Source: Ureibacillus massiliensis 4400831 = CIP 108448 = CCUG 49529 (GTDB taxonomy: Bacteria; Bacillota; Bacilli; Bacillales_A; Planococcaceae). From it: a stretch of DNA of 33,488 bases. The DNA is taken from contig NZ_JPVQ01000036.1 in the NCBI RefSeq assembly GCF_000772965.1, forward strand, positions 1 to 33,488, read 5' to 3'. The first letter of the stretch is position 1; each line of letters begins with the position of its first letter. The notes under the pieces were generated by a model. That model was not told the DNA's origin. It did not search any database and saw only the letters and a list, made by a program, of their open reading frames with translations. This document shows, piece after piece, positions 4,365 through 27,403 of this stretch. A program made the position numbers and the translations under genes.

Positions 4365-4396
4365 AATGTAACAAATAATTATGGAGAAATTATGCA
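4365..4396 (-). promoter_or_regulatory. Tandem 11-bp operator plus -10, site A (multicopper oxidase)
   Basis: In the direction of the gene, half-site TGCATAATTTC is followed directly by half-site TCCATAATTAT (4375-4396), then 4 bp, then the -10-like hexamer TACATT (4365-4370). No good -35 box is present; the repeat occupies that place. The 22 + 4 + 6 geometry recurs before five other genes. A transcript would start about 27 bases before the ATG at 4331. Confidence 0.75.
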
Positions 4397-4430
4397 CATA
4401 TCAAACTATGATAAAGGAGATTTTATCAAG

Positions 4431-4462
4431 TTCATAAAAAATTCATAATGTAATTTAAATTA
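4431..4462 (+). promoter_or_regulatory. Possible divergent copy of the tandem operator, site G (SpoIIP-like gene)
   Basis: On the plus strand TTCATAAAAAA is followed directly by TTCATAATGTA (4431-4452), an 11-bp-period direct repeat of TTCATAA. Four bases later comes AAATTA, or TAAATT one base earlier, as a poor -10. It matches the period and the CATAA core but not the rest of the consensus, so it is weaker than sites A-F. If real, it would couple the amidase gene to the divergent oxidase gene. Confidence 0.35.
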
Positions 4463-4565
4463 TAGTGAGTAATATTACTAACGGTAAATATTACAAATCC
4501 ATTTATTTTTACACTTATATAAATAATAGGTAACCCTCACACATATAGTTGTTTGAGGTGAATAA

Positions 4566-5393
4566 ATGATGCAATATAAACTAGTCTTCTTTATTGGATT
4601 CTTTTTACTATTATTTCTATCACCGATAATTGCAAGTTCTTTTAGTATAACTCAGGAAGTAGCAGTTGAAGAGCAGCAATCACCTAAAAAACTTGTGTTA
4701 GCTCCTACAACGACTACTGTACCTCTTAATACTTTGGAACCGACAATATCAAAGAATGTGTTGTTGCTTTTTACACATTCCCATGAAGCTTTTATTCCCA
4801 TAGTTAAAAATATAAGTGGAGAAAAAGCTGTTTATCACTCAAACTCAAACATTACTGAATTTGAAGAAATTATAAAAATGCACTTTAACGTTAATTCCCT
4901 AAACACAAAATTTCTTAACTTTGATACAATGGATGAATTAAAAAAAACAAATCGCACATTCTCAGAAGCTTATGATGTTGTACGACCTCATCTTTCAAAC
5001 GAAATCCAAAATAATACCTATGATCTAATCATTGACCTACATAGAGACTCAGCTTCTAAAGATATATCAACGCTTACTTATAAGGATCAGACCTATGGAA
5101 AACTCTATTTTGTTGTAGGAGAAGATAATCCAAACTACTTAATTAATCAGTCATATGCCAAAAAAATCTCTGATAAATTGAATGAGTTGGTGCCTGGAAT
5201 ATCACGCGGTGTAATAGGTAAAAAAGGGGAACATGTTGACGGTATATATAATCAAGATTTAGCTAATAATATGGTTTTGATAGAACTTGGAGGTATTGAG
5301 AATACAGAGGAAGAGATTAATCGTACGATTTCTGTACTCGCACAAGCAATCTCTATAGTTTTACAAGATGATTCATCTGTTGAAACAAATTAA
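4566..5393 (+). CDS. SpoIIP-family N-acetylmuramoyl-L-alanine amidase, short form
   Basis: A 275-residue protein with an N-terminal membrane/signal segment (residues 4-24), a short linker, and a SpoIIP amidase domain. Visible family blocks are LLFTHSHEAF, DLHRDSASK and VLIELGGIENTEEE; the His and Glu residues in these are the expected metal and catalytic ligands. SpoIIP works with SpoIID to degrade septal peptidoglycan during engulfment in sporulating cells. This copy is clearly shorter than the sporulation enzyme of Bacillus subtilis (about 400 residues) and has no gpr or spoIIP-type neighbours. It may therefore be a paralogue used in another wall-remodelling setting. Translation starts at ATG ATG after GAGGTGAATAA. 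It is divergent from the multicopper oxidase. Confidence 0.85.
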   Translation: MMQYKLVFFIGFFLLLFLSPIIASSFSITQEVAVEEQQSPKKLVLAPTTTTVPLNTLEPTISKNVLLLFTHSHEAFIPIVKNISGEKAVYHSNSNITEFEEIIKMHFNVNSLNTKFLNFDTMDELKKTNRTFSEAYDVVRPHLSNEIQNNTYDLIIDLHRDSASKDISTLTYKDQTYGKLYFVVGEDNPNYLINQSYAKKISDKLNELVPGISRGVIGKKGEHVDGIYNQDLANNMVLIELGGIENTEEEINRTISVLAQAISIVLQDDSSVETN

Positions 5394-5476
5394 TTGAAGA
5401 GACTTGTAGACTTGTATCACTATTTAATAAGTTTGAATATATAGTTTTTATAAAAGTATGTTCATTTTGTTCTAAT

Positions 5477-5506
5477 TTCTTCCGCAATCGGTCGATTGCG
5501 GAAGAA
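5477..5506. terminator. Perfect 13-bp hairpin downstream of the SpoIIP-like gene
   Basis: TTCTTCCGCAATC (5477-5489) pairs perfectly with GATTGCGGAAGAA (5494-5506) around a GGTC loop. There is no clear U-tract, so it could be a terminator with a weak tail or a dispersed palindromic repeat. Related AACAATC-type sequences occur near 20097 and 21297. Confidence 0.55.
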
Positions 5507-5546
5507 CAATTACATTGTTTATTAAGCGTTCGTTAGCACAGATATT

Positions 5547-5672
5547 TTAGATTGATTTCTTAATATGAGTAATACAAAATTCCCCACGAGCTTTTAATAT
5601 TAATATAGTTGGCCTTTTCCAACCATTATAATAAATTCCATAGTTTTCCACATCCTTTACCAAATTATCCAT
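5547..5672 (-). CDS. Possible small protein, 41 aa, unrecognised
   Basis: An ATG at 5672 is preceded at good spacing by AGGGGT (AGGGGTAAATGTC then ATG). It opens 41 codons beginning MDNLVKDVENYGIYYNGWK and ending HIKKSI before a TAA. The composition is ordinary for a soluble, basic, mixed alpha/beta peptide, with no signal or membrane segment. I do not recognise the family. It may be a genuine small gene or the tail or head of a lost one. The ribosome binding site is the main support. Confidence 0.35.
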   Translation of the reverse strand: MDNLVKDVENYGIYYNGWKRPTILILKARGEFCITHIKKSI

Positions 5673-6152: not shown

Positions 6153-6758
6153 CTATATGGAATTTACTGTTGTACGCGAAGACTTTGTGTAATCATTTAC
6201 CATGTTAATAAAATATTGAAGTACACGTACATCTTCTGTTAACTCGGGATGAAAAGAGCAGCCTAAAAATTGACCATCTTTTGCAAGAACAATTCGATTT
6301 TCAAATGTTGCTAGTATTTCAACATTATCACCGGTAGATACTATATGTGGCGCTCGAATAAAAACTGCTGGAATATCGTCACCTATTGATGGAATCGATA
6401 ATTCAACTTCAAAACTATCCAATTGTCGACCAAAAGAATTTCTTTCTACCACAACATCCATTATGCCGAGATGAGATTTTTCGAAACCTGTAATCTTTTT
6501 TGCTAATAATATAAGTCCAGCACAGGTCCCAAACGTCGGTATTCCCTGCTGTGCCAATGTTTGTATTGGCTTCAATAAGCGGTAGCGATCTAACAGTTTA
6601 CGCATTGTTGTACTTTCACCACCAGGTAAAATTAGACCGTCAAGACCATTCAAATCTTCAATTGTTTTTATTGCAATAGCTTCACAACCAAGTAATTCAA
6701 TATGTCGAATATGCTCTCTTACTGCACCTTGTAATGCTAGGACCCCTATTTTTGTCAT
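6153..6758 (-). CDS. pdxT: Pyridoxal 5'-phosphate synthase glutaminase subunit PdxT
   Basis: A class I glutamine amidotransferase of about 200 residues. It releases ammonia from glutamine and passes it to PdxS for deoxyxylulose-5-phosphate-independent vitamin B6 synthesis. Seen in the sequence: the GGEST block, the nucleophile elbow FGTCAGL with the catalytic Cys, and the C-terminal SFHPELTED supplying His and Glu. The start chosen is the ATG at 6758 ([11 protein letters not shown]), which follows GGGG with an 8-base spacing and gives the usual family N terminus. An ATG 30 bases upstream lies inside pdxS. The gene follows the pdxS stop by one base, so the two are translationally coupled. The pair looks intact. 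It has no evident link to copper and may be ordinary chromosomal sequence flanking the metal genes. Confidence 0.96.
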
Positions 6759-6759
6759 A

Positions 6760-7644
6760 TTACCAACCCCGCTCTTGCATACGTTCACTTACATCTAGTG
6801 TAGCAATGTCAATTCCCTTCATCGGTGTTCCAAGTTCCTTCGAAATTTCAGCAATAAGTTTATAGTCTTTGTAATGTGTTGTTGCTTCGACAATTGCCCG
6901 TGCAAATTTCTCAGGATTTTCTGATTTAAATATACCGGAACCAACAAACACTCCATCTGCTCCCAGTTCCATCATTAGCGCTGCATCTGCAGGTGTTGCA
7001 ACACCACCCGCAGCGAAATTTACAACTGGTAAACGACCTAACCTTTTAATTTCCAATAGTAATTCAAATGGTGCTCCCAAATTTTTTGCTTCTGTCATTA
7101 ATTCACCCTTACTCATACCAACCACACGACGTACTTGTGCGTTTACTTCGCGAATATGACGAACTGCTTCTACAATGTTGCCCGTACCTGGTTCACCTTT
7201 TGTACGAAGCATAGAAGCCCCTTCTCCAATACGTCGTGCTGCTTCTCCTAGGTTACGGCACCCACAAACAAATGGCACGGTAAAATCACTCTTAAGCAAG
7301 TGGAATTCCTCATCAGCAGGTGTTAAAACTTCACTTTCATCAATATAATCAACACCCATTGACTCTAACACGCGTGCTTCTACAATGTGACCAATACGTG
7401 CTTTTGCCATAACAGGAATTGTTACTGCATCCATTACTTCTTCAATAATTCGAGGATCAGCCATACGAGCAACACCGCCAGCTTTTCGAATATCCGATGG
7501 TACTCGTTCTAGTGCCATTACTGCCACTGCTCCCGCTGCCTCTGCAATTTTTGCTTGTTCTGCATTAATGACGTCCATAATAACGCCGCCCTTTTGCATT
7601 TCTGCCATTCCACGTTTGACCCTATCAGTTCCAACTTGTACCAT
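6760..7644 (-). CDS. pdxS: Pyridoxal 5'-phosphate synthase, synthase subunit PdxS
   Basis: The (beta/alpha)8 synthase builds pyridoxal phosphate from ribose-5-phosphate, glyceraldehyde-3-phosphate and ammonia delivered by PdxT. The sequence is near the family norm over its whole length. Landmarks include [17 protein letters not shown] near the N terminus, [24 protein letters not shown] with the substrate-binding lysine, [17 protein letters not shown] and [11 protein letters not shown]. The start chosen is the ATG at 7644 ([13 protein letters not shown]), eight bases after GGGGG; two in-frame ATGs upstream overlap that ribosome binding site. A TATAAT-rich segment at about 7663-7683 is a likely -10. 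A divergent MocR-type PdxR regulator, common beside pdxST in other genera, was not found upstream. Confidence 0.97.
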
Positions 7645-7858
7645 TAACATAACCCCCATTCCTATTATAATTTTTATTATAATGAAGATTGACTACATAA
7701 AAAGAGCCAATTTCCTAAAATTTTACATGGTCAGTTGGAGGTGACAACTTATAAATCTGCAACAATATGTTTAAAAGGACTCGATATTCTAGACATATAA
7801 ACCTGATTTATTAATACAATCTTTTCAATCAGTCTTCAACTGTGAAATAAATTAAAAA

Positions 7859-8454: not shown

Positions 8455-8477
8455 ACTAGTTCTCTCCTTTTATTTTT

Positions 8478-8695
8478 CCATTAATATTTGAATAGGACAA
8501 GCATTTCATTTAAAAGTTCTAAATCCCCTTCTTGTATACAATTAACAACATACTTTTCATATGCACTTTAAGAAGTAGGATTGCTACACTATTAAACACA
8601 GCATTAGTAGCAGATAATTGTGTTAAAACCATCACAATAAGTTTCTCTTTCAATTAAACCCTATTAATTCACGATTGCCGTACCTTAAATCGAAA
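8478..8695 (-). pseudogene. csoR remnant with frameshifts and stops
   Basis: The minus strand upstream of the orphan copZ carries fragments in shifting frames that align in order with the intact CsoR here. GLIERETYCDG matches GMIDKDVYCDD. VLTQLSATNAVFNSVA then ILLLKVHMKS matches VITQLSATQSALNSVA then RILLEGHLKS. VVNCIQEGDLELLNEMLV matches VVERISEGDEEVLDEFVV. At least two frameshifts and upstream stops make it non-functional. The order csoR remnant, copZ, copA remnant repeats the intact operon at 29.7-32.9 kb. Confidence 0.85.
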
Positions 8696-8828
8696 TAATT
8701 AAAGTTTTCAGAATAATCTCAGGATACTTTTTAATAAAATAACAATAGTTATAAGAACGATTTGAAGAAGAAATTATTATAATTAAACCTTACATATAAG
8801 ATTAATATAATTTGTCCTAAACTCCATC

Positions 8829-9770: not shown

Positions 9771-9807
9771 ATCTCCATCCTTTCGTAGTATATAAAAATA
9801 TATTATA

Positions 9808-9822
9808 TACCCTTTATAGGTA
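9808..9822 (-). promoter_or_regulatory. CsoR-type operator before the membrane-cupredoxin gene
   Basis: TACCCTTTATAGGTA matches the CsoR pattern TACCC-N5-GGGTA with one mismatch. On the minus strand it is directly followed by TATAAT, so bound repressor would block RNA polymerase. Three further copies lie at the intact csoR-copZ-copA locus. Confidence 0.7.
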
Positions 9823-9893
9823 TGCATCTTTATTTATAAATTATTTATAATCATTTGTATTATCAAATTAAAATAGTTAATTCTTAAAAACAA

Positions 9894-9926
9894 AATGCTT
9901 GAAGGTATTCTTTACCCACAAGCATT
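9894..9926. terminator. Bidirectional terminator
   Basis: AATGCTTG (9894-9901) pairs with CAAGCATT (9919-9926). T-runs follow on both strands. It ends the copper storage protein transcript before the membrane-cupredoxin promoter. Confidence 0.7.
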
Positions 9927-9969
9927 ATTTTTTACTAAATAATTTTTTCTCGCTAATTTCATTAATAAA

Positions 9970-10299: not shown

Positions 10300-10444
10300 T
10301 TTTAATTACCTCCAATAATATTAAGTTCAAAAGTATTATGTACATTGCCTTATTTTTTAAACTAAGGTCAAAAAAATTGGGTAAGTCTCATCAACATTTC
10401 TCCCATATTTCAAACAAGGTTAGTTTATACTCCCGTACTTTTCA

Positions 10445-11555: not shown

Positions 11556-12185
11556 TTATTGAGCTGATAATTCACTTTCTGTTACCCATTTATGGTTTGT
11601 TACTTGTTCACCAGTTGTAGAAGTAAAGTCAACCATATAAACGGTTGTTTCTTCAGCGGAGTCTATTGTAGCAGTAGCACCCTTCATACCTTCCATATGA
11701 TCAGCATTAATTGTTGCTTCAGTTCCTGGCTCTAAAGATTCTTCACCAACATCTTCTAATTCCTCATGGATAACCCACTTATGATTTGTAACTGGGTCAC
11801 CACCAGTAGTTGGAGTATATGAGACAGTATATACTGTTGTATCATAAGCACCCACAATTGTTGCTTCTGCACCTTTCATACCAGACATATGATCTGATTC
11901 AATAATTGCTTTACTGCCAACAGGGAAAGTTGGGTTCTCAGCTTCAATTAAACCTTCTGGAACTTCACCTGATCCTGAGTGATTCATGTTAGAATGGTCC
12001 ATACCTTGCATATCATCAGTTTCCTCTGATTCCTCCATTCCATCCATGTTATGACCAGCCATATCATTATTCTCTTCTTGAACAGTCTCATTCTCAGTTG
12101 TTTCTTCGTTATTTCCACCTGCACAGGCAGAAAGTGTTAAAACTGCTAAAAACGAAATAATTCCAAACATTATTTTATTTTTCAT
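11556..12185 (-). CDS. ydhK: YdhK family lipoprotein (DUF1541 repeats)
   Basis: A 209-residue lipoprotein (lipobox LSACAGG, Cys about 21). It has an acidic Met/His-rich linker with the GMDHSNM motif also seen in the multicopper oxidase. Two copies of a ~55-residue YdhK (DUF1541) domain follow: each runs from a DHM-x-GMKGA-x-ATI block to TNHKW near its end. The function of the family is not established; it appears in copper and cell-envelope contexts, and the His/Met clusters suggest metal binding at the surface (inference). The start follows GGGGGT at normal spacing. The promoter has a textbook TATAAT and the shared tandem operator at 12227-12248, so it probably belongs to the same regulon as the oxidase and CopB. 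Confidence 0.92.
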   Translation of the reverse strand: MKNKIMFGIISFLAVLTLSACAGGNNEETTENETVQEENNDMAGHNMDGMEESEETDDMQGMDHSNMNHSGSGEVPEGLIEAENPTFPVGSKAIIESDHMSGMKGAEATIVGAYDTTVYTVSYTPTTGGDPVTNHKWVIHEELEDVGEESLEPGTEATINADHMEGMKGATATIDSAEETTVYMVDFTSTTGEQVTNHKWVTESELSAQ

Positions 12186-12216: not shown

Positions 12217-12248
12217 ATTATAATCCTAAAATTTGCAGAAATTATGCA
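12217..12248 (-). promoter_or_regulatory. Tandem 11-bp operator plus -10, site B (ydhK)
   Basis: In gene direction TGCATAATTTC is followed by TGCAAATTTTA (12227-12248), then 4 bp, then a perfect TATAAT (12217-12222). The spacing is identical to sites A, C, E and F. The predicted transcript starts about 25 bases before the ATG at 12185. Confidence 0.8.
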
Positions 12249-14382: not shown

Positions 14383-16572
14383 TTAATCAATCCTCAATAG
14401 CTGAGCATTAACCGCACAAATTATAGTACTTAATGACATAACGGCAGCCCCGATTGCCGGTGTGATTACAATCCCCACACTAATAAGAACTCCAGCTGCT
14501 AGTGGTATGGCAATAATATTGTATCCGGTAGCCCAGATTAAATTTTGAACCATTTTTCGTCGACTAGCTTTGGAAAGTTTAAGAGTACTTAATATATCAA
14601 CAGGTTTACTGTTTACTAAAACAACATCTGCAGTTTCAATTGCAACGTCAGTTCCAGCGCCAATTGCAATTCCTAAATCAGCTTCGGCTAAAGCAGGTGC
14701 ATCGTTTACACCATCACCAACCATCGCGACTTTTTTGCCACCCTCTTTTAATGTACTGACATTATCTGATTTTTCATGTGGTAGTACTTCAGCAATCACC
14801 TTTGTCATTCCAAGCTTTTCGCCAACATAATGTGCTACTCGACTATTATCACCAGTCATCATTACAGTTTCAATTCCTAATTCACTAAGTTCTTTTATAA
14901 CTTTATAAGAGGATTCTCTAATTATATCCGCTAATGCAATCATCCCTTGTAATACGCTATCTTTTAATACAAAAATAACGGTTTTACCTTGTTGTGCTAG
15001 ATTCTCATATTTTTGTTCATCGAAGGAAATTTGATTTGCTCTTAATACACCTGGACTTACAACTGCAATTTCAGAACCATTTATTTTCGCCACAAGGCCT
15101 TTACCTGTTAGGTTTTGATAGTCATTAACTTCATATATCTCTAATTTACGATCCTTACCTTCCTTTACTATCCCTTTTGCAATAGGATGTTCAGATTGTA
15201 TTTCAACAGAATACGCTAGTTTTAATAATTCTTCTTCACTAACACCTTTATTTGGATAAACATCTGTTACTCCGAAATTTCCTTCTGTTAAAGTACCTGT
15301 TTTATCAAAAACTATTCGATTAATTTTAAATGCACTTTCAAATGATGTACGGTTACGAATCAATAGCCCATTTTTGGCTGCAAGTGATGTAGATCTAGAT
15401 GCTACAAGGGGTGTAGCTAGACCAAGTGCGTGTGGACAAGCGATAATCAATACAGTTACCATTCTTTCTAACGCTATATCAAAATCACCTATTATCCACC
15501 AATGAGCCAATGTAATAATCCCTGAAACAACGGCAACATAAAATAACCATTTTGCAGCAGTGTCTGCAAACCCTTGAGCTTTTGATTTTGTTTTCTGGGC
15601 TTCACTAACTAATTGGATAACTTTAGCAAGATATGTGTCACTACCTGTTTTTCTAACAGTTATTTTTAATACACCATCACCATTAATAGCCCCACCAATT
15701 GCTTCCATTCCAATCGTTTTTTCTACCGGAATCGATTCTCCAGTTAACATCGATTCGTCAACTGTTGAATGTCCTTCAAAGATTATTCCATCGAGTGGAA
15801 TTTTTTCTCCTGGCTTCACCAAAATTTGGTCACCTGGTTTTAAGTCTTCAACTGAAATTTCCACTATATTACCTTCAATTTCAAGTTTATGAACTTCTTT
15901 TGGCATTAGCTTAATTAATTCTTCTAATGCTTTCGAAGCACCCGATATAGATTTCATTTCAATCCAGTGACCAAGAAGCATAATGACAATCAATGTTGCT
16001 AATTCGAAGTAGAAGTCACTACCTTCGATAAAGAAAGCAGTTAATGTACTATATACATAAGCAGTAACGATTGCTAATGAAATTAACAACATCATACCTG
16101 GTGCTCTATCTTTAATCTCGCTCCAAGCACCGAATAAAAAAGGTTTACCACCATAAAAAAAGACAATTGTAGACAATAAGAATAATAAAAATGTATCTCC
16201 AGGGAATTCAACATGATAGCCAAATAACATTTGAATCATCATTGATAAATATGAAATCGGTATAGTTAAAACTAATGACACCCAAAAACGTTTTTTAAAC
16301 TCAGCAATTGAATGGCCATGGTGTTTGTCGTGCCCCTCATGGCTACTATGATTATGATTATGACTGTGATGACTACGTTCAGTATGTTCATGGTGATTTT
16401 TTTCCGGAGTCGTATGTTGGTGATCGTTGTGTTGTTCATTTTCTGTCATATAAACATGTTCATTATGTTTATGTCCATGGTGAACATGTTCATTGTTGTC
16501 GCTTTCATAGTGATTATGACGTGAATGTTCATCATCAAAATGATTTTTGCTATCAATACCTTTATTACCCAT
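14383..16572 (-). CDS. copB: CopB-type P1B heavy-metal ATPase with His-rich N terminus
   Basis: A P-type ATPase that should pump copper (or silver) out of the cell. The transmembrane metal site is CPH (ACPHALGLATP) rather than CPC, which defines the CopB/P1B-3 class. Also seen are the actuator motif LTGES, the phosphorylation site DKTGTLTEG, HP in SEHPIAKG, and the hinge GDGVNDAPAL. Instead of HMA domains, it has an N-terminal tail of about 85 residues crowded with His (HHGHKHNEH, SHHSHNHNH, HDKHHGH). The start chosen is the ATG at 16572 (MGNKGIDSKN), seven bases after GGAG; an in-frame ATG at 16635 has a weaker site and would add 21 residues. Tandem operator site C lies upstream, so it is likely controlled by the two-component system rather than CsoR. 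Confidence 0.95.
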   Translation of the reverse strand: MGNKGIDSKNHFDDEHSRHNHYESDNNEHVHHGHKHNEHVYMTENEQHNDHQHTTPEKNHHEHTERSHHSHNHNHSSHEGHDKHHGHSIAEFKKRFWVSLVLTIPISYLSMMIQMLFGYHVEFPGDTFLLFLLSTIVFFYGGKPFLFGAWSEIKDRAPGMMLLISLAIVTAYVYSTLTAFFIEGSDFYFELATLIVIMLLGHWIEMKSISGASKALEELIKLMPKEVHKLEIEGNIVEISVEDLKPGDQILVKPGEKIPLDGIIFEGHSTVDESMLTGESIPVEKTIGMEAIGGAINGDGVLKITVRKTGSDTYLAKVIQLVSEAQKTKSKAQGFADTAAKWLFYVAVVSGIITLAHWWIIGDFDIALERMVTVLIIACPHALGLATPLVASRSTSLAAKNGLLIRNRTSFESAFKINRIVFDKTGTLTEGNFGVTDVYPNKGVSEEELLKLAYSVEIQSEHPIAKGIVKEGKDRKLEIYEVNDYQNLTGKGLVAKINGSEIAVVSPGVLRANQISFDEQKYENLAQQGKTVIFVLKDSVLQGMIALADIIRESSYKVIKELSELGIETVMMTGDNSRVAHYVGEKLGMTKVIAEVLPHEKSDNVSTLKEGGKKVAMVGDGVNDAPALAEADLGIAIGAGTDVAIETADVVLVNSKPVDILSTLKLSKASRRKMVQNLIWATGYNIIAIPLAAGVLISVGIVITPAIGAAVMSLSTIICAVNAQLLRID

Positions 16573-16685
16573 TTCCTCACTCCTAACAACATTCGTGGTT
16601 GTGTTTCCAATACAGAGTAATTCTTCTTCATTCACTTTTGACCATATTAAACCAATATAGTCATTATTAACCTTTATATAAATCT

Positions 16686-16717
16686 AATGTAACACGTAAA
16701 TATGCAGAATTTATGGA
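16686..16717 (-). promoter_or_regulatory. Tandem 11-bp operator plus -10, site C (copB)
   Basis: TCCATAAATTC is followed by TGCATATTTAC (16696-16717), then 4 bp, then TACATT (16686-16691), the same -10 variant and spacing as the multicopper oxidase promoter. Confidence 0.75.
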
Positions 16718-16908: not shown

Positions 16909-18117
16909 CTAATCAATACTGTCCACTTTTTTATGGTTTTTTATAAACAATATTCTTAACAAAATTAAGATAAAAATTAACATTACGAAGAACATTAAAT
17001 TTTTATTAATTCTTTGATCATTTATTGCGTTATCCTTGGATTCTTTTAAAATTTCAACATTATCGTTCCAAGTTATATTTTTCTCTAATTGAAATTGGGC
17101 AATTACATCTTGTGAGTCGTTTTTTAGTTCCAAAACTCCACCTTTTGTTATCAGTTTATGAATATTTTCATTATTAGAAATCGTATAGGTAAGAATATCA
17201 TTGTTTATGTACTCTTCATTGTTTATTTCAAACAATTGTCCCTGTGAAATACTCTCTACTGTAAAATTATTAAAACCATAATCAAGTAGGTCTACAGTAT
17301 CGTGATAAGCAATATCTTCTGTTGGAGCATTAAGAGTAACAGCAATTAATGATAAATCTCCTCTTGTTGCAGCAGTAACTAAAGTAATACCAGACTCATC
17401 AATATAACCAGTTTTCCCTCCTGTAATCCCTTCATATGGTTGTTCTCGCATTAATTTATGATGAGTATATATGGTTGTATCCCACGACTCCCCATTCCAA
17501 CTTAATTCCTTTGTTCCAAATATTTCTCGGAACTCATTATTCTTCATTGCATACTGTGTAATCAGTGCGAGGTCCCTAGCAGTAGTTAAGTGCTCTGGAT
17601 GGTAAAGACCATGTGGGTTAACAAAGTTTGTATTTTGTAGTCCTAAATCTTTTAAGTATCGATTTAAACTAATTACGAAATCCTCTACCGATCCATCCAA
17701 GTGTTCTGCTATTGCTATACCTGCATCATTCCCGGAATTGACCAGTAGTCCTTCGATAAGCCTTTTTAAGGTTATCTTTTCTCCTTCTTCTAAATAAACC
17801 CGAGTACCTTCTACGTCTCTTGCATTGTGACTTACTGTTACAATGTCTTCAAGATTTCCATTTTCAATTGCATATATTGCAGTTGCAATTTTTGTTAAGC
17901 TTGCTGGTTGCATCTTTTTATCTGAATTTTTTTCATATAAAACTCTGCCTGTGTTTCCATCAATTAAAATGGCAGCTTCACTTGTTATAAGTGGTTCATC
18001 AGGAGAAACTGCTCCTATTACTTTATTATTAAAGAAGATTGAAAAAATAGATAAGATTATTAGTAAAACCAATAATTTCATTACTAATGGAATATCAATG
18101 CCTATAAATCTCCACAT
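16909..18117 (-). CDS. D-alanyl-D-alanine carboxypeptidase (peptidase S11, DacF/DacA-like)
   Basis: A low-molecular-weight penicillin-binding protein that trims the terminal D-Ala from peptidoglycan stem peptides. The three active-site motifs are present: SxxK as ASLTKIA, SxN as NSGNDAG, and KTG as GGKTGY. An N-terminal signal/anchor segment (LLVLLIILSIFSIFF) precedes the catalytic domain. A second hydrophobic helix near the C terminus (NLMFFVMLIFILILLRILFI) anchors it to the membrane. The start chosen is the ATG at 18117 (MWRFIGID), which follows GGGGAG; the longer frame from 18135 contains that ribosome binding site. Unexpectedly, the promoter carries site D of the tandem operator shared with copper genes, suggesting a wall response to the same signal. 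Confidence 0.93.
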   Translation of the reverse strand: MWRFIGIDIPLVMKLLVLLIILSIFSIFFNNKVIGAVSPDEPLITSEAAILIDGNTGRVLYEKNSDKKMQPASLTKIATAIYAIENGNLEDIVTVSHNARDVEGTRVYLEEGEKITLKRLIEGLLVNSGNDAGIAIAEHLDGSVEDFVISLNRYLKDLGLQNTNFVNPHGLYHPEHLTTARDLALITQYAMKNNEFREIFGTKELSWNGESWDTTIYTHHKLMREQPYEGITGGKTGYIDESGITLVTAATRGDLSLIAVTLNAPTEDIAYHDTVDLLDYGFNNFTVESISQGQLFEINNEEYINNDILTYTISNNENIHKLITKGGVLELKNDSQDVIAQFQLEKNITWNDNVEILKESKDNAINDQRINKNLMFFVMLIFILILLRILFIKNHKKVDSID

Positions 18118-18163
18118 ACATATTATTCTCCCCATAAAAATTTACCTAATGTATTTTAAGAAA

Positions 18164-18195
18164 TAAATATGAAAAAATTATGGAGAAATTAAAGA
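18164..18195 (-). promoter_or_regulatory. Tandem 11-bp operator plus -10, site D (carboxypeptidase)
   Basis: TCTTTAATTTC is followed by TCCATAATTTT (18174-18195), then 4 bp, then TATTTA (18164-18169). The distal half-site lacks the CATAA core and the -10 is a poor match, so this is the weakest of the minus-strand sites, but the spacing holds. Confidence 0.55.
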
Positions 18196-21519: not shown

Positions 21520-22266
21520 CTAAATCCCCCAATATGTTAGCGTATCGAATAACCCAATTATAATAAGAATTACACCGGTTGTATTTTGTACGACTTTTCC
21601 TATGTTTCTACTATTTTTCATAATAACTCGTTTCGCATCAAAAACTTCAATTAAAGCAAAAATAAGTAGTAAAGGAATTGAAGTTGCGATTCCAAACACT
21701 GCTGGTAGGGCAAAACCATATGAAGTAGAGACAACTGTAGGCATTAACCAAACAAAAAACAGGACAAACATAGTTGGACAAAAAGCGAGCGAAAAACTTG
21801 CACCTAATAAAAAGGAGCCCAGTTTTCCTTCTTTCATGATGACTGGAACACGTTCAGTAATTCTCCCTAGAAATTCCATTTTAAACAATCCAAGTAGTAC
21901 AAGACCTGTTAAGACCAATAATGGTCCGATTACTTTCCTGAATACTGCAAAGTACTTAGTCATCTCTGTTTCAAATGCCTGTCCAAAAATCCAGGCAAGC
22001 CATCCTATTAAACTGAACACAACAACTTTTCCAAAAATAAAGAATGCAATTTCAGTCCAAATTGTCTCTTTTTGTATCGCTCTATTTCCATAAAACGTAA
22101 TAGCACTAATATTGCCGGTTAATTGACAGGGTGCAAATGCGCCTATTAATCCAAGCAAAATCGCAACAATAATTGGAGAATGTTCATAGGAATACATAAA
22201 CGCTGAAATTGGTTCACTAATCATTCCACTTATATTAGATAGAAAACTATACATAATAAATACCAT
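21520..22266 (-). CDS. CcdA/DsbD-like membrane protein (second copy)
   Basis: A ~248-residue protein with six predicted membrane helices. Two helices carry the single cysteines typical of the DsbD/CcdA electron-relay fold: GAFAPCQLTG in the first and FCPTMFVLFF in the fourth. The family carries reducing equivalents from cytosolic thioredoxin to proteins outside the membrane. It is the last gene of the operon and follows the lipoprotein stop by 9 bases. It differs from the first CcdA (25911-26621) in having APCQ instead of SPCS, and may serve a dedicated partner such as the preceding lipoprotein or a copper protein (inference). The start is uncertain between the ATG at 22266 and another four codons later; AGGGA is nearby but spaced poorly for both. 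Confidence 0.8.
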   Translation of the reverse strand: MVFIMYSFLSNISGMISEPISAFMYSYEHSPIIVAILLGLIGAFAPCQLTGNISAITFYGNRAIQKETIWTEIAFFIFGKVVVFSLIGWLAWIFGQAFETEMTKYFAVFRKVIGPLLVLTGLVLLGLFKMEFLGRITERVPVIMKEGKLGSFLLGASFSLAFCPTMFVLFFVWLMPTVVSTSYGFALPAVFGIATSIPLLLIFALIEVFDAKRVIMKNSRNIGKVVQNTTGVILIIIGLFDTLTYWGI

Positions 22267-22275: not shown

Positions 22276-23196
22276 TTATTTCCTCAATTCACCATTTGAA
22301 GCTAACTTCTCCCAATTAACAAGATCTTTTGTTAAATAAATATTTAAAGTATTTGTTACTATCGTTATTTCTGCACTATTATTAGGATTAGTAGCAATAT
22401 AGACAATAGGATCTTTCATTATTTCCTCTGGAAGTGGAATTTCTTTTTCTTCTGAACTGTCAAATGTAAATGATTTTAAATAAACATTCGAATCATCAAA
22501 ATTTGTATAGTAGCCACCAGACTCAGTTAATGTAACGTAAGAAACCATACTTGCAGAATTAAATTTTTTAAAGTTTTGACCAAAATCTTCAGTCATAAAT
22601 ATTCCATCTTTACTTCCTATTACAAGCAACTCTTCTCTTGTTGGATGTGCAGCAAAGTTTGAGATATATGTCGAATTAAATCCATTTAGAGCTGATGAAG
22701 TCCAAGTTTTACCTTCGTCAGTTGAATAATGTAGACCTCCCTCTAAATTTTCTGTTGGCATTTCATTAAATACATAAATTGCATTTGAGTTGTACCCAGC
22801 GGCAAGATAGTGGAAATCAATTTCCCCATAAAATGCCAACTTTTCAAAGCTTGCACCTTTATCCGTACTTTTAATTAGACCTAAAGGATTTTCAAGGTCA
22901 GAACTTTGACCAGGATGTCCACTTGCAAAGAAACCATCATTTACTGCTTGGAATCCCATATAATCATGCTTTTGACTATTAGCTTCTTTCCAACCACTTT
23001 CATCGTAGGAATATAAACCTGCATGTGTAGCAATTACCACACTATCTTCTCCATTTATATAGCCTACACCATGAATGTGATCAATTGGATTATTTTTAAC
23101 TTCACCGTATTGAAACTCAATATTTTCACCTGAACTACAGGCTGTTAAAATTAAGACTAACATTAAAAGGCTAAACATCATTGTATACTTTTTCAT
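22276..23196 (-). CDS. Beta-propeller-like lipoprotein (F510_1955 glycosylhydrolase-type)
   Basis: A 306-residue lipoprotein (lipobox LTACSSG). After the anchor comes IDHIHGVGY. Then come repeated blades with BNR/Asp-box-like turns (STDKGASFEKL, STDEGKTWTSS, TEDFGQNFKKF). It resembles the family annotated as F510_1955-type glycosylhydrolase, a name based on fold; no catalytic proof is known to me. The conserved HIHG near the N terminus and later His (YAT-HAG, SGHPG, DFHYLA) could bind metal. Its place between the response regulator and the DsbD-like gene, in one transcript, suggests it senses, stores or scavenges something at the membrane surface linked to the two-component signal. Translation starts with GGAG seven bases before ATG. 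Confidence 0.8.
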   Translation of the reverse strand: MKKYTMMFSLLMLVLILTACSSGENIEFQYGEVKNNPIDHIHGVGYINGEDSVVIATHAGLYSYDESGWKEANSQKHDYMGFQAVNDGFFASGHPGQSSDLENPLGLIKSTDKGASFEKLAFYGEIDFHYLAAGYNSNAIYVFNEMPTENLEGGLHYSTDEGKTWTSSALNGFNSTYISNFAAHPTREELLVIGSKDGIFMTEDFGQNFKKFNSASMVSYVTLTESGGYYTNFDDSNVYLKSFTFDSSEEKEIPLPEEIMKDPIVYIATNPNNSAEITIVTNTLNIYLTKDLVNWEKLASNGELRK

Positions 23197-23209: not shown

Positions 23210-23896
23210 TTAACTCCATTTATAACCAATTCCCCAAACCGTTTTGAGGAAATCATCAATTGGTAATCCTGCTTTCCCGAGTTTATCTCTCAAATTACGG
23301 ATATGTGAGTCTACTGTTCTAATATCAGTATCTGTTTCATATTCCCAAGCAGCGTTCATTAATTCCTCTCTTGTAAATGTCTTTGTCGGTCTAGAAATCA
23401 TAGCCTCTAAAATATGGAATTCTTTTAGAGTCAGTTGAACAGTTAAATCCAAATAATGTAACGAGTATGTTTCTTGATCCAATTGAAAACCATTAAACTT
23501 AATCATATTTTGTTCATCATCATCTTCAGGGAATCTTCTTAGAACCGCATTTACTCTTGCCACTAATTCCTTTTCATTAAATGGCTTTGAAATATAGTCA
23601 TCTGCACCAATATTTAAACCTTTAACTAAGTCTTCTTTATCAGATCTAGCAGTCAACATAATGATTGGTACATTTGAAAATTCACGGATTTTTTCACATA
23701 CTTCCCATCCGTCCATTTCAGGCATCATAACATCTAATAAGATTAGTTGAATTCTTTCTCTCTCAAGTACTTTTAATGCCTCATTGCCATCCGTAACTTT
23801 GATGCACTTATATCTATGAGGGATTAAAAATAATTCAACTAAATCTAGCATTCTTTGCTCATCATCGACCAAAAGAATGGTTTGCGTTTTGGGCAT
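23210..23896 (-). CDS. OmpR-family response regulator
   Basis: A ~228-residue regulator. The receiver domain has the acidic pair in LVDDEQ, phospho-acceptor Asp in LILLDVMMPEMDGW, Thr in MLTARS and Lys in SKPFNEKEL. The winged-helix domain has the family's TLKEFHILEAM, FTREELMNAAW, VDSHIRNLRDKLG and WGIGYKW. The start chosen is the ATG at 23896 (MPKTQTILL), right after GGGGGTGGG and 16 bases past the kinase stop. As an OmpR-type factor it should bind direct repeats with a 10-11 bp period, exactly the form of sites A-F. One of those (site E) drives its own operon, so this is the best candidate for the shared regulator (inference). Confidence 0.93.
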   Translation of the reverse strand: MPKTQTILLVDDEQRMLDLVELFLIPHRYKCIKVTDGNEALKVLERERIQLILLDVMMPEMDGWEVCEKIREFSNVPIIMLTARSDKEDLVKGLNIGADDYISKPFNEKELVARVNAVLRRFPEDDDEQNMIKFNGFQLDQETYSLHYLDLTVQLTLKEFHILEAMISRPTKTFTREELMNAAWEYETDTDIRTVDSHIRNLRDKLGKAGLPIDDFLKTVWGIGYKWS

Positions 23897-23912
23897 ATTC
23901 CCACCCCCATAT

Positions 23913-25274
23913 TTAAATAATAATGGTAAATGTACTACCAATTCCTAAGTTACTTTCCACATTAATAGTACCGCCATGTGCTTCGACTAACTCTTTCACA
24001 ACAGCTAATCCAATTCCTGAACCACCATAAACTCGCGATCGTGATTTTTCAACACGGTATAATTTCTCAAAGATAAAATCTAATTCTTCCGACGGAATAC
24101 CGATTCCAGAATCAATAACCTTAACAACCGTTTTATCTCCTTTTTTATATGCTTCCAATAGTACTTCCGTATTTTCTTTTGAATATTTCAATGCATTATC
24201 TAATAAATTTACAATTATTTGCCCTAAGCGAATAGAGTCAGCAAATATTGTAAAATTTTCATTAGTTTTCAAGTTTAGTTTAATGTTTTTCAATTCAAAT
24301 GATGGTGCAACAAGTTTACAAATATCCTCAAGGAATGGTTGTGACTCAAAATTGGTTTTTGTTACCGTAAAAGAGTTTTCATCCATTCTAGCAAGATCTA
24401 ATAAATTCTTAACTAACTCTTTCATCTTGTTTGACTCTTCACCAATAATTTCAAGATATTGTTTTCTTTCCTCGTCACCCAATCCATCTCTCATTGCAAC
24501 ATTAGAGTAGCCAATTAAATAAGTTAAAGGTGTACTTAATTCGTGCGAAACCGAAGCTAGAAATTCATTCCGATCTTTTTTTAGTCTCTCCAAATCATTG
24601 GCCAGTTTTTGAATAGAAAAAGATAATTCACCAAGTTCGTCTTTCCCTAATTTAGGAAGGCTAACATTAAATTCACCTTTACTTAATTTTTCCGTTGCCT
24701 CTTTCATCCGTATTAATGGTCTAGTGATCACTTTTGATAATACAGCGTAAATTAGTAAAAGCACTACAAAACTGGTTACTCCCGCTATTGCGAAGTGAAC
24801 ATTCAAGTAGCTAACCATTTGATTAAGTGAGTTTGTACTTTGAAACATCACAACATAACCAACCTCAATTTCACTTACTTTATAGGGATGAATACTAACT
24901 ATATAAGGCGAATTTTCCCAATCAGAGATTAATATCCTATCCTTACCTTCTTCTAAATCTTTTATTAGTGGATTGTATACTTCTAATAAGTTGCTGTCTA
25001 TCCCAGAGTTTCCTATAATGTTACCTCTATTATCGGTAATGACAACTTCTCTCTCCTCATTCATTTCCATCAATACAATATGTTTTATTGTAGTATCAGA
25101 ATAATTCTCAACTAATACATCTCTGTGGTTTGCCCCATTTGATAATAATAAGGAAAACTCTTCTTCAACTCTGGTATGGATAATTTTTCGATGAAGATAA
25201 ACCATAAGAAAGCATTCCATCACAAGCACTACAATAAAAAAACATGTAGCCAGTTTTATAGAAACTTTGTTCAT
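23913..25274 (-). CDS. Membrane sensor histidine kinase
   Basis: A 453-residue sensor. The first membrane helix is at about residues 7-27. An extracytoplasmic domain of ~130 residues follows, then a second helix at about 162-183 and a HAMP linker. The dimerisation domain contains SHELSTPLTYLIGY (phospho-His), and the ATPase domain contains the N box (LLDNALKYS), G1 (DSGIGIPSEE), F box (FIFEKLYR) and G2 (GGSGIGLA). The extracytoplasmic domain has no Met/His cluster that would name copper directly. It precedes and is cotranscribed with the response regulator. An inverted repeat (25292-25318) lies just before its ribosome binding site GGAGG. The gene order kinase then regulator is the reverse of the second two-component system here. 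Confidence 0.93.
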   Translation of the reverse strand: MNKVSIKLATCFFIVVLVMECFLMVYLHRKIIHTRVEEEFSLLLSNGANHRDVLVENYSDTTIKHIVLMEMNEEREVVITDNRGNIIGNSGIDSNLLEVYNPLIKDLEEGKDRILISDWENSPYIVSIHPYKVSEIEVGYVVMFQSTNSLNQMVSYLNVHFAIAGVTSFVVLLLIYAVLSKVITRPLIRMKEATEKLSKGEFNVSLPKLGKDELGELSFSIQKLANDLERLKKDRNEFLASVSHELSTPLTYLIGYSNVAMRDGLGDEERKQYLEIIGEESNKMKELVKNLLDLARMDENSFTVTKTNFESQPFLEDICKLVAPSFELKNIKLNLKTNENFTIFADSIRLGQIIVNLLDNALKYSKENTEVLLEAYKKGDKTVVKVIDSGIGIPSEELDFIFEKLYRVEKSRSRVYGGSGIGLAVVKELVEAHGGTINVESNLGIGSTFTIII

Positions 25275-25318: not shown

Positions 25319-25325
25319 TCAAACG

Positions 25326-25871
25326 TTAATTTAAATTTTTACTTGGCAATATCTGTTCCATATAACTGCGAATAGCCGTTTCACTCATTTCCCCAGTAAT
25401 AATATTCTCTATTTTTCCTTCCGGATTAATAAGAACTGTCGTTGGTAAAGGATTAATATTATATGTACCCATTACACTTTTACTTTTATCGATTAATACA
25501 GGGAATGTTAATCCTTTACGATCAATGTAATTTTGAACTACAAAATCCGATTCAGCAATATTTACTGCTAAAACCTGAAGACCTTGTGTTTTATATACTT
25601 GGTAATAACGATTAATTATTGGAAACTCTCTTTCACAAGGTTTGCACCAAGTACCCCAAAAGTTTAAAAAGACCCCTTGTCCCCTATAATCAGATAACCT
25701 GTGTTCAACACCATCCATATCTATAAGTACGAAATCCGGAGCAACATCACCTACTTGTAAAACTTCAGCTTTTTCTTTCGTTAAACCTGTATAAATCGTA
25801 AATACTATAGCAGAAAATAATAATAGTAGAATAACAAATCTTACTACTCTACGTCTCTTTTTTTTATCCAT
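25326..25871 (-). CDS. ResA/TlpA-like membrane-anchored thioredoxin
   Basis: A 181-residue protein: basic N terminus, one membrane helix (VVRFVILLLLFSAIVFTIYTGL), and a TlpA/ResA thioredoxin domain with the active site WCKPC in NFWGTWCKPCEREFP and cis-Pro loop PLPTTV. It should face outward and receive electrons from the CcdA encoded just upstream, whose stop it follows by about 40 bases. In Bacillus, ResA keeps apo-cytochrome c haem-binding cysteines reduced; in this setting a role in repairing copper-catalysed disulfides or preparing copper sites is plausible (inference). It is a paralogue of the WCPPC protein at 10445-11071. Confidence 0.93.
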   Translation of the reverse strand: MDKKKRRRVVRFVILLLLFSAIVFTIYTGLTKEKAEVLQVGDVAPDFVLIDMDGVEHRLSDYRGQGVFLNFWGTWCKPCEREFPIINRYYQVYKTQGLQVLAVNIAESDFVVQNYIDRKGLTFPVLIDKSKSVMGTYNINPLPTTVLINPEGKIENIITGEMSETAIRSYMEQILPSKNLN

Positions 25872-25910: not shown

Positions 25911-26621
25911 TTAAAATCCTGTAAATCCACCGAAGTATGGTATTAAGAAAGTAATAATCATTGTCATTAAATCAAAGTATAATAGGATACCCATCATAAT
26001 CATTATAATCCCACCTATTTTCATAAATAGGTCGCTTCTTTTTTGAAGAAATTTCATTCTCCCAATAAATAGAGACATTACTAGGAATGGAATAGAAAAA
26101 CCAAGTACATAAAATAACATATAGATAATTCCCTGACTTGGATTTGAAATTCCTAACGCAATGACACCTGCAAGGATTGGACCTGTACAAGGGGTCCACC
26201 CAGCTGCAAAACCTATTCCAATCAAAACAGAACCAATATATCCTTGAGGTCTTTTCTTAAACTGGATTCTTTTTTCGGAACTTAAAAAATCAAATTTGAA
26301 GAAACCTAGAATTACTAAACCAAAGATAACCATAAATAGTGCACCAATTTGCCTTAGTAAATCTTGATACTGTATAAAGATTTGTCCAATTATGGAAGTT
26401 GAAAGTCCTAAAGCCAAAAAGATTATCGAAAATCCAATTAAAAATAATATCGTATGAATTAGCGCTCTCTTATGAAATATTCCTTTTTCTTCTTTCAATT
26501 CATTAAAGGACATTCCAGTAACATAAGAAAGAAATGCGGGATATAACGGAAGAGAACATGGTGAAATAAACGACAAAAGCCCTGCTCCGAATGCAAGAAA
26601 GAAATTTAATTGATCAACCAA
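25911..26621 (-). CDS. ccdA: CcdA-type cytochrome c biogenesis/thiol-electron transporter
   Basis: A 236-residue protein with six membrane helices and the two CcdA cysteines, in SFISPCSLPLYPAF and GWTPCTGPILAG, both flanked by the usual Pro residues. It moves reducing equivalents from cytosolic thioredoxin to extracytoplasmic thioredoxins such as the ResA-like protein next to it. Translation begins with TTG at 26621, eight bases after GGTGGAG. It is the first gene of the six-gene operon running to 21520. The promoter has a perfect TATAAT and tandem operator site E, which places thiol-redox maintenance and the two-component genes themselves under the shared control. Confidence 0.94.
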   Translation of the reverse strand: MVDQLNFFLAFGAGLLSFISPCSLPLYPAFLSYVTGMSFNELKEEKGIFHKRALIHTILFLIGFSIIFLALGLSTSIIGQIFIQYQDLLRQIGALFMVIFGLVILGFFKFDFLSSEKRIQFKKRPQGYIGSVLIGIGFAAGWTPCTGPILAGVIALGISNPSQGIIYMLFYVLGFSIPFLVMSLFIGRMKFLQKRSDLFMKIGGIIMIMMGILLYFDLMTMIITFLIPYFGGFTGF

Positions 26622-26691
26622 AATAATGTCTCCACCCTTACCATTTTATTTGAAAACAATGGCTACAAATAAAAATTTTAAAATTAAATAA

Positions 26692-26723
26692 ATTATAAAC
26701 AAGATTTATGCAAAAACTATGGA
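26692..26723 (-). promoter_or_regulatory. Tandem 11-bp operator plus -10, site E (ccdA-kinase-regulator operon)
   Basis: TCCATAGTTTT is followed by TGCATAAATCT (26702-26723), then 4 bp, then TATAAT (26692-26697). A third, weaker half-like segment (TTTATTTTC) lies directly upstream. Since the operon encodes an OmpR-family regulator, this is the likely autoregulation site. Confidence 0.8.
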
Positions 26724-26756
26724 GAAAATAAATCTTACCATTACAAAAGTCAAAAA

Positions 26757-26783
26757 GGTTATCCTATCTCAACTAGGATAACC
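26757..26783 (-). terminator. Terminator after the ferritin-like gene
   Basis: On the minus strand GGTTATCCTA, a 7-nt loop and TAGGATAACC form a perfect 10-bp stem followed by TTTTTG. It insulates the ccdA operon promoter from the upstream gene. Confidence 0.9.
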
Positions 26784-26876
26784 TTACAAAATTGACCATT
26801 TCTCTCTTTCCCATTTATATTTACTTTTCTGTACTATATCCTACATAATGCTAAATACGATGAAATGCTATTCTAA

Positions 26877-27284
26877 TTATAGATTCATCAATATATATTG
26901 TAATAGAGATAGATGACGCTGTTCATCTAGTGCAGCATTTTTAAAATACAATCTCCCTTTTGTTGATACTGCCCTCGAAGATAGTCTTAAATAGCAAATC
27001 GCACTATCTAATTCGTTTTGTATAGCTATACTTAAACCTTCTTCAAATTCAAAAGATATTATCTCATCAGGTTCTGAGGATTGCAGGCCATCTAAAGTAG
27101 GTAGAATTTTATTTAACCATTGAAAGTGTTTAATTTCATCACTCTGAATCTTTATTATCAAGTGTTGGTATTCTTCTTTAGGTGCAAGTTCTGCTAATTT
27201 ATTATAAAAGTTGTATTGTTTGACTTCATTAACTAAAGCTTTTGAAATTTCCTCTATTAAATGCTCATCATTATCCAAAATCAC
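26877..27284 (-). CDS. Ferritin-like (rubrerythrin/DUF2383-class) di-iron protein
   Basis: A protein of about 135 residues forming a predicted four-helix bundle. The carboxylate/His pattern of ferritin-like proteins is visible: NEVKQYNFY, DEIKHFQW (ExxH), NELDSAICYLR and DEQRHLSL (ExxH). This supports a di-metal site, although the closest subfamily cannot be fixed by eye. Such proteins detoxify peroxide or store iron. The start is unclear. The ATG at 27296 contains its own AAGGG; the GTG at 27284 or TTG at 27278 is better placed after it, and GTG is used here. The gene is monocistronic, with tandem operator site F at its promoter and a terminator after it, which links it to the copper regulon. 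Confidence 0.75.
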   Translation of the reverse strand: MILDNDEHLIEEISKALVNEVKQYNFYNKLAELAPKEEYQHLIIKIQSDEIKHFQWLNKILPTLDGLQSSEPDEIISFEFEEGLSIAIQNELDSAICYLRLSSRAVSTKGRLYFKNAALDEQRHLSLLQYILMNL

Positions 27285-27371
27285 ACATCCCTTCATTTAT
27301 TATGAGGAATTTTGGTATAAACTCTTTCAACGAATCCCTTTCACACCTTGCTTTTACGTATTACAGTTAAA

Positions 27372-27403
27372 ATTATAACAATTAAATTTGTAGAAATTAT
27401 GGA
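27372..27403 (-). promoter_or_regulatory. Tandem 11-bp operator plus -10, site F (ferritin-like gene)
   Basis: TCCATAATTTC is followed by TACAAATTTAA (27382-27403), then 4 bp, then a perfect TATAAT (27372-27377). Half-sites and spacing closely match site B. Confidence 0.8.

What the first reader, a model, noticed from the sequence alone, without database searches (positions are those of the whole stretch)
4365..27403. A six-member operator family with invariant geometry defines a hidden regulon
Upstream of six transcription units (multicopper oxidase 4375-4396, ydhK 12227-12248, copB 16696-16717, D,D-carboxypeptidase 18174-18195, ccdA operon 26702-26723, ferritin-like 27382-27403) the same layout is seen: two abutting 11-bp half-sites with consensus TSCATAATTTC, then exactly 4 bp, then a -10 hexamer (TATAAT three times, TACATT twice, TATTTA once). 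There is no -35 box; the repeat takes its place. Direct repeats with an 11-bp period beside -10 boxes are the known mode of OmpR-family activators. The members (Cu oxidase, Cu ATPase, surface metal-binding protein, thiol redox, wall and iron proteins) look like an extracytoplasmic copper or oxidative stress response parallel to CsoR. I know of no described Firmicutes regulon of this composition.
Basis: partly seen in the sequence, partly recalled or inferred. Interest (0 to 1): 0.87.

Follow-up and report, generated by a model that had tools for sequence, protein, structure and literature searches.

The report
Copper-stress two-component regulon in Bacillales
The repeated DNA motif is real and marks a set of genes that are probably switched on together when copper reaches the outside of the cell membrane, most likely by a sensor-regulator pair encoded in the same region; the same motif and pair recur in many related bacteria.

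Summary
Six minus-strand promoters carry a 22-bp tandem repeat (two 11-mers, TSCATAATTTC), 4 bp, then a -10, with no -35. The D,D-carboxypeptidase box was read one half-site too far upstream (better 32-mer 18153-18184; three half-sites). A profile of the six sites finds nine sites with E<=0.0096 in the 4.0-Mb genome, next 0.26; the reversed profile's best is 0.13. The three new sites lie in a second, paralogous copper island with a counterpart of only one of the window's two two-component systems (HK 23913-25274/RR 23210-23941). The other regulator has orthologues (E<=1e-75) in 4 of 250 family genomes, so it is not the general regulator. Box and RR family recur together (boxes in 50 of 80 RR loci), before multicopper oxidase, YdhK, CopB, CcdA and the kinase. 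His50, His65, Met69 of the sensor domain are invariant (72 of 72). Best reading: a CopRS-like extracytoplasmic copper regulon beside CsoR, closest to C. glutamicum CopRS; ten paper searches listed no Firmicutes counterpart. Copper induction and DNA binding are inferred, not shown.

The parts
4365..4396 (-). Box + -10 of the multicopper oxidase gene (22-mer 4375-4396, ttgt, TACATT)
   Evidence: E 1.1e-5
2790..4331 (-). Multicopper oxidase (CueO-like) lipoprotein, target gene
   Evidence: best hit NCBIfam CueO model, below its curated cut-off
12217..12248 (-). Box + -10 of ydhK (22-mer 12227-12248, ggat, TATAAT)
   Evidence: E 1.6e-5
11556..12185 (-). YdhK/CopL-type lipoprotein, tandem DUF1541, target gene
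   Evidence: PF07563 1.9e-50
16686..16717 (-). Box + -10 of copB (22-mer 16696-16717, gtgt, TACATT)
   Evidence: E 1.0e-5
14383..16635 (-). CopB-type His-rich copper P-type ATPase, target gene
   Evidence: TIGR01511 598.2 bits, cut-off 397
18153..18195 (-). Triple half-site + -10 of the D,D-carboxypeptidase gene; preferred register 18163-18184 + ttct + TAAAAT (18153-18158); extra upstream half-site 18185-18195
   Evidence: E 0.0021
16909..18135 (-). D-Ala-D-Ala carboxypeptidase (Peptidase_S11), target gene; the listed first ATG overlaps a ribosome-binding-site-like GGGGAGA, so the start is probably the in-frame ATG six codons on
   Evidence: PF00768 3.9e-61; start codon read by eye
26692..26723 (-). 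Box + -10 of the ccdA-resA-HK-RR operon (22-mer 26702-26723, tgtt, TATAAT): autoregulation of the sensor/regulator
   Evidence: E 1.1e-4
25911..26621 (-). CcdA/DsbD-type membrane thiol-redox protein
25326..25871 (-). ResA/TlpA-type thiol-disulfide oxidoreductase
   Evidence: NF002854, above cut-off
23913..25274 (-). Sensor histidine kinase (proposed CopS-like); extracytoplasmic domain about residues 27-168 with invariant H50, H65, M69 and near-invariant M143
23210..23941 (-). OmpR/PhoB-type response regulator (proposed CopR-like), the likely binder of the boxes
22276..23196 (-). F510_1955-family BNR-repeat lipoprotein, same operon
   Evidence: NF045728, above cut-off
21520..22266 (-). TauE/SafE-type (DsbD_2-like) membrane protein, same operon
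   Evidence: (ArsG model, below cut-off) and product name of the gene in the same position
27372..27403 (-). Box + -10 of the ferritin/rubrerythrin-like gene (22-mer 27382-27403, ttgt, TATAAT)
   Evidence: E 1.6e-5
26877..27296 (-). Rubrerythrin/ferritin-like protein, target gene
   Evidence: PF02915 6.3e-7

Best explanation
The boxes are operators of the OmpR-family response regulator at 23210-23941, paired with the kinase at 23913-25274. Proposed chain: the kinase's extracytoplasmic PDC/PAS-like domain binds copper (possibly also silver) through His50/His65/Met69 (inferred); it phosphorylates the regulator (inferred from family knowledge); two regulator monomers bind head-to-tail to the two 11-bp half-sites that take the place of the -35 element; they recruit RNA polymerase to the -10, 4 bp away (class II activation, inferred from geometry). 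The result is induction of copper oxidation (multicopper oxidase), export (CopB), surface binding (YdhK/CopL), disulfide repair (CcdA/ResA), a wall D,D-carboxypeptidase, a ferritin-like protein, and the two-component operon itself. CsoR appears to keep csoR, copZ and copA separately. Shown here: the boxes, their geometry, confinement of the strong sites to two copper islands in the genome, and co-occurrence and co-location with this regulator family. Not shown: binding, phosphorylation, copper induction.
For: Genome-wide specificity: 9 hits E<=0.0096 in 4.0 Mb, next 0.26, all nine in the window or contig C134; reversed profile best 0.128. C134 carries a paralogous island with RR 70% and HK 68% identical, boxes before the HK, the D,D-carboxypeptidase and ydhK paralogues, and CueP, DsbA-like and DsbB-like genes. 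The other window regulator is 39% identical to the C134 RR and has matches at E<=1e-75 in only 4 of 250 family genomes, against box hits E<=0.01 in 63 of 250 and 2 of 250 with the reversed profile. Co-occurrence over 250 genomes (own one included), RR E<=1e-100 and box E<=0.01: both 37, RR only 11, box only 26, neither 176 (odds ratio 22.8, P 8e-18; phylogeny not corrected). Of 12 genomes with a box E<=0.01 but no RR at 1e-75, 6 have a 50-52% RR within 2 kb of the box. Of the 29 fetched best boxes of other family genomes, 26 precede an intact MCO, YdhK, CcdA or HK frame and one a decayed ccdA followed by the HK (L057). In 80 named RR loci, 50 carry 88 boxes of 18 bits or more, 70 of them within 600 bp before a homologue of an island gene. 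RR residues T195 and S198 of the recognition helix are kept in the 82 RR1-type sequences aligned and differ in RR2. His50, His65, Met69 in 72 of 72 kinases, Met143 in 71 of 72. CsoR-operator-like sites lie at 32187, 32487 and 32896 and at none of the six promoters. Plasmid copies sit among copper genes.
Against: No expression or binding data. 11 of 48 genomes with a close RR (E<=1e-100) lack a box at E<=0.01, and 26 have a box without such an RR. G131 has a 31.9-bit box before ydhK with no RR at E<=1e-55; G165 and G109 also lack one. 30 of 80 RR loci show no box of 18 bits or more in the stretch held, including 4 of 19 with RR >=60% identical. Two further DUF1541 genes of the same genome have no box. 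Ten of the 80 RR loci lack a recognisable HK1-type kinase. The loci are centred on the RR, so copper neighbours are over-represented there. The plain-pattern search had as many reversed-control hits (8) as real ones (9) at 3 mismatches. The metal ligands rest on conservation alone; the model was not examined for their geometry.
Confidence: 0.8

Rival explanations
1. The boxes are bound by the second two-component regulator of the window (RR 28857-29564/HK 27460-28902), which lies directly upstream of the ferritin-like target.
For: One box (27372-27403) lies just behind HK2; RR2 is also an OmpR-type regulator with a similar recognition helix (RIVDTHIKNIR against RTVDSHIRNLR). In G051 a box lies just after an RR 46% identical to RR2.
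Against: Matches at E<=1e-75 in only 4 of 250 family genomes; no second RR among the listed C134 ORFs of 60 aa or more; no box before its own gene among the best window hits; the RR1 family tracks the box.
Confidence: 0.05
2. The boxes belong to a different, unlinked regulator or respond to oxidative or thiol stress rather than copper; the two-component system is merely another target.
For: Targets include thiol-redox and ferritin-like genes; a box lies before the kinase operon, as any target would have; some box-bearing genomes lack the RR.
Against: The strong sites of this genome sit in the two copper islands only; 71 of the 76 typed boxes on an RR-bearing contig are within 40 kb of that RR; plasmids carry RR, HK and boxes together.
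Confidence: 0.12
3. The boxes are repressor sites (the response regulator blocks the promoter).
For: Box and promoter overlap; some sites have an extended -10, which can work without a -35 (3 of 6).
Against: No -35 at any of nine sites; fixed 4-bp spacing to the -10 across species, as expected for contact with RNA polymerase; the OmpR-type copper regulator of C. glutamicum activates (PMC3140484).
Confidence: 0.08
4. Chance AT-rich repeats beside promoters.
For: The window is 32% G+C; the loose pattern search has 8 reversed-control hits against 9.
Against: Profile search against its reversed control (29 and 85); Markov copies; 6 hits on two control strands against 90 real ones.
Confidence: 0.01

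Closest known systems
CopRS of Corynebacterium glutamicum (PMC3140484; passages seen)
   Same: OmpR-type (recalled) two-component system in a Gram-positive; operator is an 11-bp-period direct repeat (TGAAGATTTgaTGAAGATTT); regulon has a multicopper oxidase, a CopB ATPase and a TlpA-like thioredoxin; the system activates its own genes
   Different: One operator in the whole genome for two divergent operons, far upstream of one start; here at least nine promoter-proximal operators replacing the -35, other half-site sequence, plus YdhK, D,D-carboxypeptidase and ferritin-like genes; Bacillota, not Actinobacteria
CsoR regulon of Firmicutes; S. aureus copXL (PMC5947656; passages seen)
   Same: Effectors overlap (P-type ATPase plus a DUF1541 lipoprotein homologous to YdhK); copper induction
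   Different: CsoR is a cytoplasmic one-component repressor with another operator; here its operator-like sites lie before csoR, copZ and copA, with two weaker ones at 8185 and 9807, not at the six promoters
CusRS/CopRS/PcoRS of Gram-negatives (heavy-metal TCS, TIGR01386/TIGR01387)
   Same: Periplasmic copper sensing by a histidine kinase and response regulator (recall, and passages of PMC10141476)
   Different: RR1 156.6 bits against cut-off 279.2, HK1 156.6 against 292.55
DsbRS of Pseudomonas aeruginosa (mentioned in PMC10141476)
   Same: Copper-responsive two-component system that induces disulfide-bond formation genes
   Different: Known to me only from that passage; no copper efflux set described there

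Membership tests
CopRS-type copper regulon (as in C. glutamicum) | OmpR/PhoB-type response regulator with an adjacent HAMP histidine kinase | tested here: met
   RR1 full-length to OmpR/PhoB-type models, none above cut-off; HK1: HAMP, HisKA, HATPase_c
CopRS-type copper regulon (as in C. glutamicum) | 11-bp-period direct-repeat operator | tested here: met
CopRS-type copper regulon (as in C. glutamicum) | Regulon with multicopper oxidase, CopB ATPase, thioredoxin-like protein and the TCS itself | tested here: met
   regulon membership by operator only
CopRS-type copper regulon (as in C. glutamicum) | Specific induction by copper through the kinase | not testable with these tools
   needs expression data; only invariant His/Met in the sensor domain
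CopRS-type copper regulon (as in C. glutamicum) | Orthology of the RR/HK to C. glutamicum CopRS | not tested
   the C. glutamicum proteins were not at hand
Gram-negative heavy-metal TCS (TIGR01386/TIGR01387) | Scores above the curated cut-offs | tested here: not met
CsoR regulon | CsoR operator in the promoter | tested here: not met
   none at the six promoters at up to 2 mismatches; present before csoR, copZ, copA
OmpR/PhoB class II activation | Tandem repeat overlapping the -35 position, fixed spacing to the -10, no -35 consensus | tested here: met
OmpR/PhoB class II activation | Activation shown in vitro or in vivo | not testable with these tools
   no wet-lab data at hand

The most novel reading that the evidence does not exclude
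Bacillales have a second, undescribed and horizontally mobile copper-response system: a CopRS-like pair commanding a scattered regulon that couples copper export and oxidation with disulfide repair and cell-wall remodelling. In this genome two paralogous sensor-regulator pairs, with almost the same recognition helix and the same operator, would drive each other's islands, giving one regulon with two sensors.
Probability: 0.45. Interest if true: 0.68.

Novelty: new member of a known kind. Interest (0 to 1): 0.6.

Why it matters
Copper control in Firmicutes is described as cytoplasmic one-component sensing (CsoR, CopY; passages and recall). A conserved extracytoplasmic copper-sensing regulon in Bacillales, whose regulator family is also on plasmids including those of lactic acid bacteria, would explain how these bacteria control surface copper oxidases and copper-binding lipoproteins. 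It would assign a regulator to YdhK/CopL and add wall D,D-carboxypeptidase and disulfide enzymes to the copper response. It gives a directly testable operator, regulator and candidate metal ligands.

Tried and rejected
RR 28857-29564 as the regulator was tested and rejected. CsoR control of the six promoters was tested and rejected. The plain-pattern search with 3 mismatches found 5 of the 6 window boxes (ccdA missed), the shifted D,D-carboxypeptidase register, 2 of 3 C134 sites and one site on C125 inside a long ORF of the opposite strand; its reversed control had 8 hits, so it was not used as evidence. The first profile R1 was built on alignment A1, in which the D,D-carboxypeptidase site was misaligned; it was not used and was replaced by R2. 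The order-level search returned only genomes of the same family in its listed rows, so it added a fuller hit table and no new lineages. The Latilactobacillus sakei plasmid locus has a 22.7-bit candidate box before lgt, but its control strand reaches 21.7, so it is inconclusive. The Foldseek search of the sensor domain gave WalK-type extracellular domains (best E 8.7e-5, TM about 0.5) and weakly CzcS (E 0.008): it supports a PDC/PAS-like sensor but says nothing on the metal. Papers: PMC3140484, PMC5947656 and PMC10141476 were seen as passages only; all others as search listings and starts of abstracts; no full text or supplement was read.

Weak points left open: E-values of the profiles are rough by the tool's own statement; co-occurrence was not corrected for relatedness; loci are RR-centred; one of the 80 records is titled Chryseobacterium (L134), probably a mislabelled or mixed assembly.
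Full report
What is there. The six boxes are at the stated places on the minus strand. Each is a pair of abutting 11-mers, then 4 bp, then a -10. No -35 is present at any of the six, nor at the three further sites found later (best 2 of 6 bases). Three of the six have an extended -10.

Is it more than chance? A sequence-only profile of the six sites (R2) was run on the whole genome (4.0 Mb, 156 contigs). It returned nine sites with E from 1.0e-5 to 0.0096, and then nothing until 0.26. Six are the training sites; the other three are on contig C134 (11,888 bp), an independent confirmation. The same profile read backwards (R3) has its best hit at 0.128. Over 250 family genomes R2 hits 108 at E<=0.05 and 63 at E<=0.01, R3 12 and 2. 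A plain pattern with up to 3 mismatches did not separate from its reversed control (9 against 8 hits) and is not used.

The second island. C134 holds a paralogous set: HK 9148-10503 and RR 8464-9135 (68% and 70% identical to the window pair), CcdA and ResA homologues, DsbA-like and DsbB-like proteins, a D,D-carboxypeptidase, YdhK, a TauE/DsbD_2-like protein and a CueP-family copper protein. The three boxes lie before the HK, the D,D-carboxypeptidase and ydhK. RR 28857-29564 of the window is 39% identical to the C134 RR.

Which regulator? Over 250 genomes of the family (own one included), the RR 23210-23941 family is found in 133 at E<=1e-75, and RR 28857-29564 in 4. With RR E<=1e-100 and box E<=0.01 the table is both 37, RR only 11, box only 26, neither 176. 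Relatedness is not corrected. Some lie far away, e.g. before an MCO-like gene (33% identity) 603 kb from the RR (G010) and before CueP 114 kb away (G120), as expected for action in trans. Twelve genomes had a box but no RR at 1e-75. Six of them have an RR of 50-52% identity within 2 kb of the box; G131, G165 and G109 have none at E<=1e-55, G051 only a 43% one, and G049 and G127 have theirs elsewhere.

What the boxes control. The search fetched the best box of each of 29 other family genomes, chosen by box score and not by neighbours. 26 of 29 precede an intact multicopper oxidase, YdhK, CcdA or HK frame (in some the longest frame begins within or before the box). L057 precedes a decayed ccdA with the HK behind it, L043 ends 86 bp after its site (1586 bases held), and L047 precedes a C39-like peptidase. 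In 80 named loci of the RR family, nearly all Bacillales by title, 50 carry 88 boxes of 18 bits or more. 70 of these have a homologue of an island gene within 600 bp downstream (HK 23, YdhK 16, MCO 8, CopB 6, CcdA 4, D,D-carboxypeptidase 3, BNR lipoprotein 3, TauE/UreH-like 2, and one each of ResA, RR, TlpA, CueP and CopA); 10 precede other frames and 8 have no frame listed. Among the others is a SpoIIP-family protein in L065, whose relative at 4566-5393 in the window has no box. By identity of the RR, 15 of 19 loci at 60% or more and 35 of 61 at 50-57% have a box. In these loci 74 of 90 boxes found with the 22-mer alone have TANNNT exactly 4 bp on.

The sensor. Read from the sequence, the kinase has an extracytoplasmic domain between two membrane helices (no topology program was run). 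Over 72 kinases His50, His65 and Met69 are invariant and Met143 is kept in 71. AlphaFold gives a confident domain (mean pLDDT 86.9) that resembles WalK sensor domains. His and Met are typical Cu(I)/Ag(I) ligands (general knowledge), so copper is the likely signal, but this is inference.

Division of labour. CsoR-operator-like sequences (pattern from PMC5947656, passages) lie before csoR, copZ and copA (32896, 32487, 32187; 1-2 mismatches), with two weaker ones at 8185 and 9807, and at none of the six promoters. So two copper circuits appear to run side by side: CsoR inside, the two-component system outside.

Spread. The RR is also encoded on 25 plasmid records at E<=1e-60, including Lactobacillaceae. 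Regions of Sporosarcina psychrophila, Bacillus methanolicus, Paenibacillus urinalis and Latilactobacillus sakei plasmids were read. Boxes are clear in the first three (best 38.3, 33.1 and 29.6 bits; control strands at most 8.7) and inconclusive in L. sakei (22.7 against 21.7).

Known or new? The nearest described system is CopRS of C. glutamicum (PMC3140484, passages), with the same logic and a direct repeat of the same period. Ten paper searches listed no Firmicutes copper two-component regulon of this kind; most subscription papers are not held and the listings were capped, so this is not proof of absence. The regulator and kinase fall below the curated cut-offs of the Gram-negative heavy-metal families. 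I file it as a new member of a known kind (copper-responsive OmpR-type regulons) with an unusually scattered, uniform operator set.

Noticed in passing
window 27460-29564: A second two-component system (HK2/RR2), RR2 matched at E<=1e-75 in only 4 of 250 family genomes; no box before its own genes; target unknown.
   Followed up: partly
window 9807 and 8185: Weaker CsoR-operator-like sequences (2 mismatches); the first lies at the start of the cupredoxin-membrane gene 8829-9827.
   Followed up: no
window 9970-10299: Cys-rich four-helix protein of the DUF326/Csp copper-storage kind, without a box.
   Followed up: no
window 4566-5393; L065 18910-20074: SpoIIP-family protein divergent from the multicopper oxidase; no box in the window, but the L065 relative has one.
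   Followed up: partly
G000 contigs C1 138897-139226 and C119 12358-12699: Two more DUF1541 genes of the same genome without a box.
   Followed up: partly
L140 (Latilactobacillus sakei plasmid 2): RR/HK pair among cupredoxins, copper ATPase, lgt and YdhK on a mobilizable plasmid.
   Followed up: partly
L082, L102, L105 and L107: Boxes with TCGATA half-sites instead of TGCATA/TCCATA, a possible shift in operator specificity in Alkalihalobacterium and Planococcus.
   Followed up: no
L057 (unnamed family genome): A ccdA gene behind a box looks decayed (broken frame) while box and kinase are kept.
   Followed up: no
window 6153-7659: pdxS/pdxT-like genes (vitamin B6 synthesis; named by eye from the translation) lie between copper genes.
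   Followed up: no
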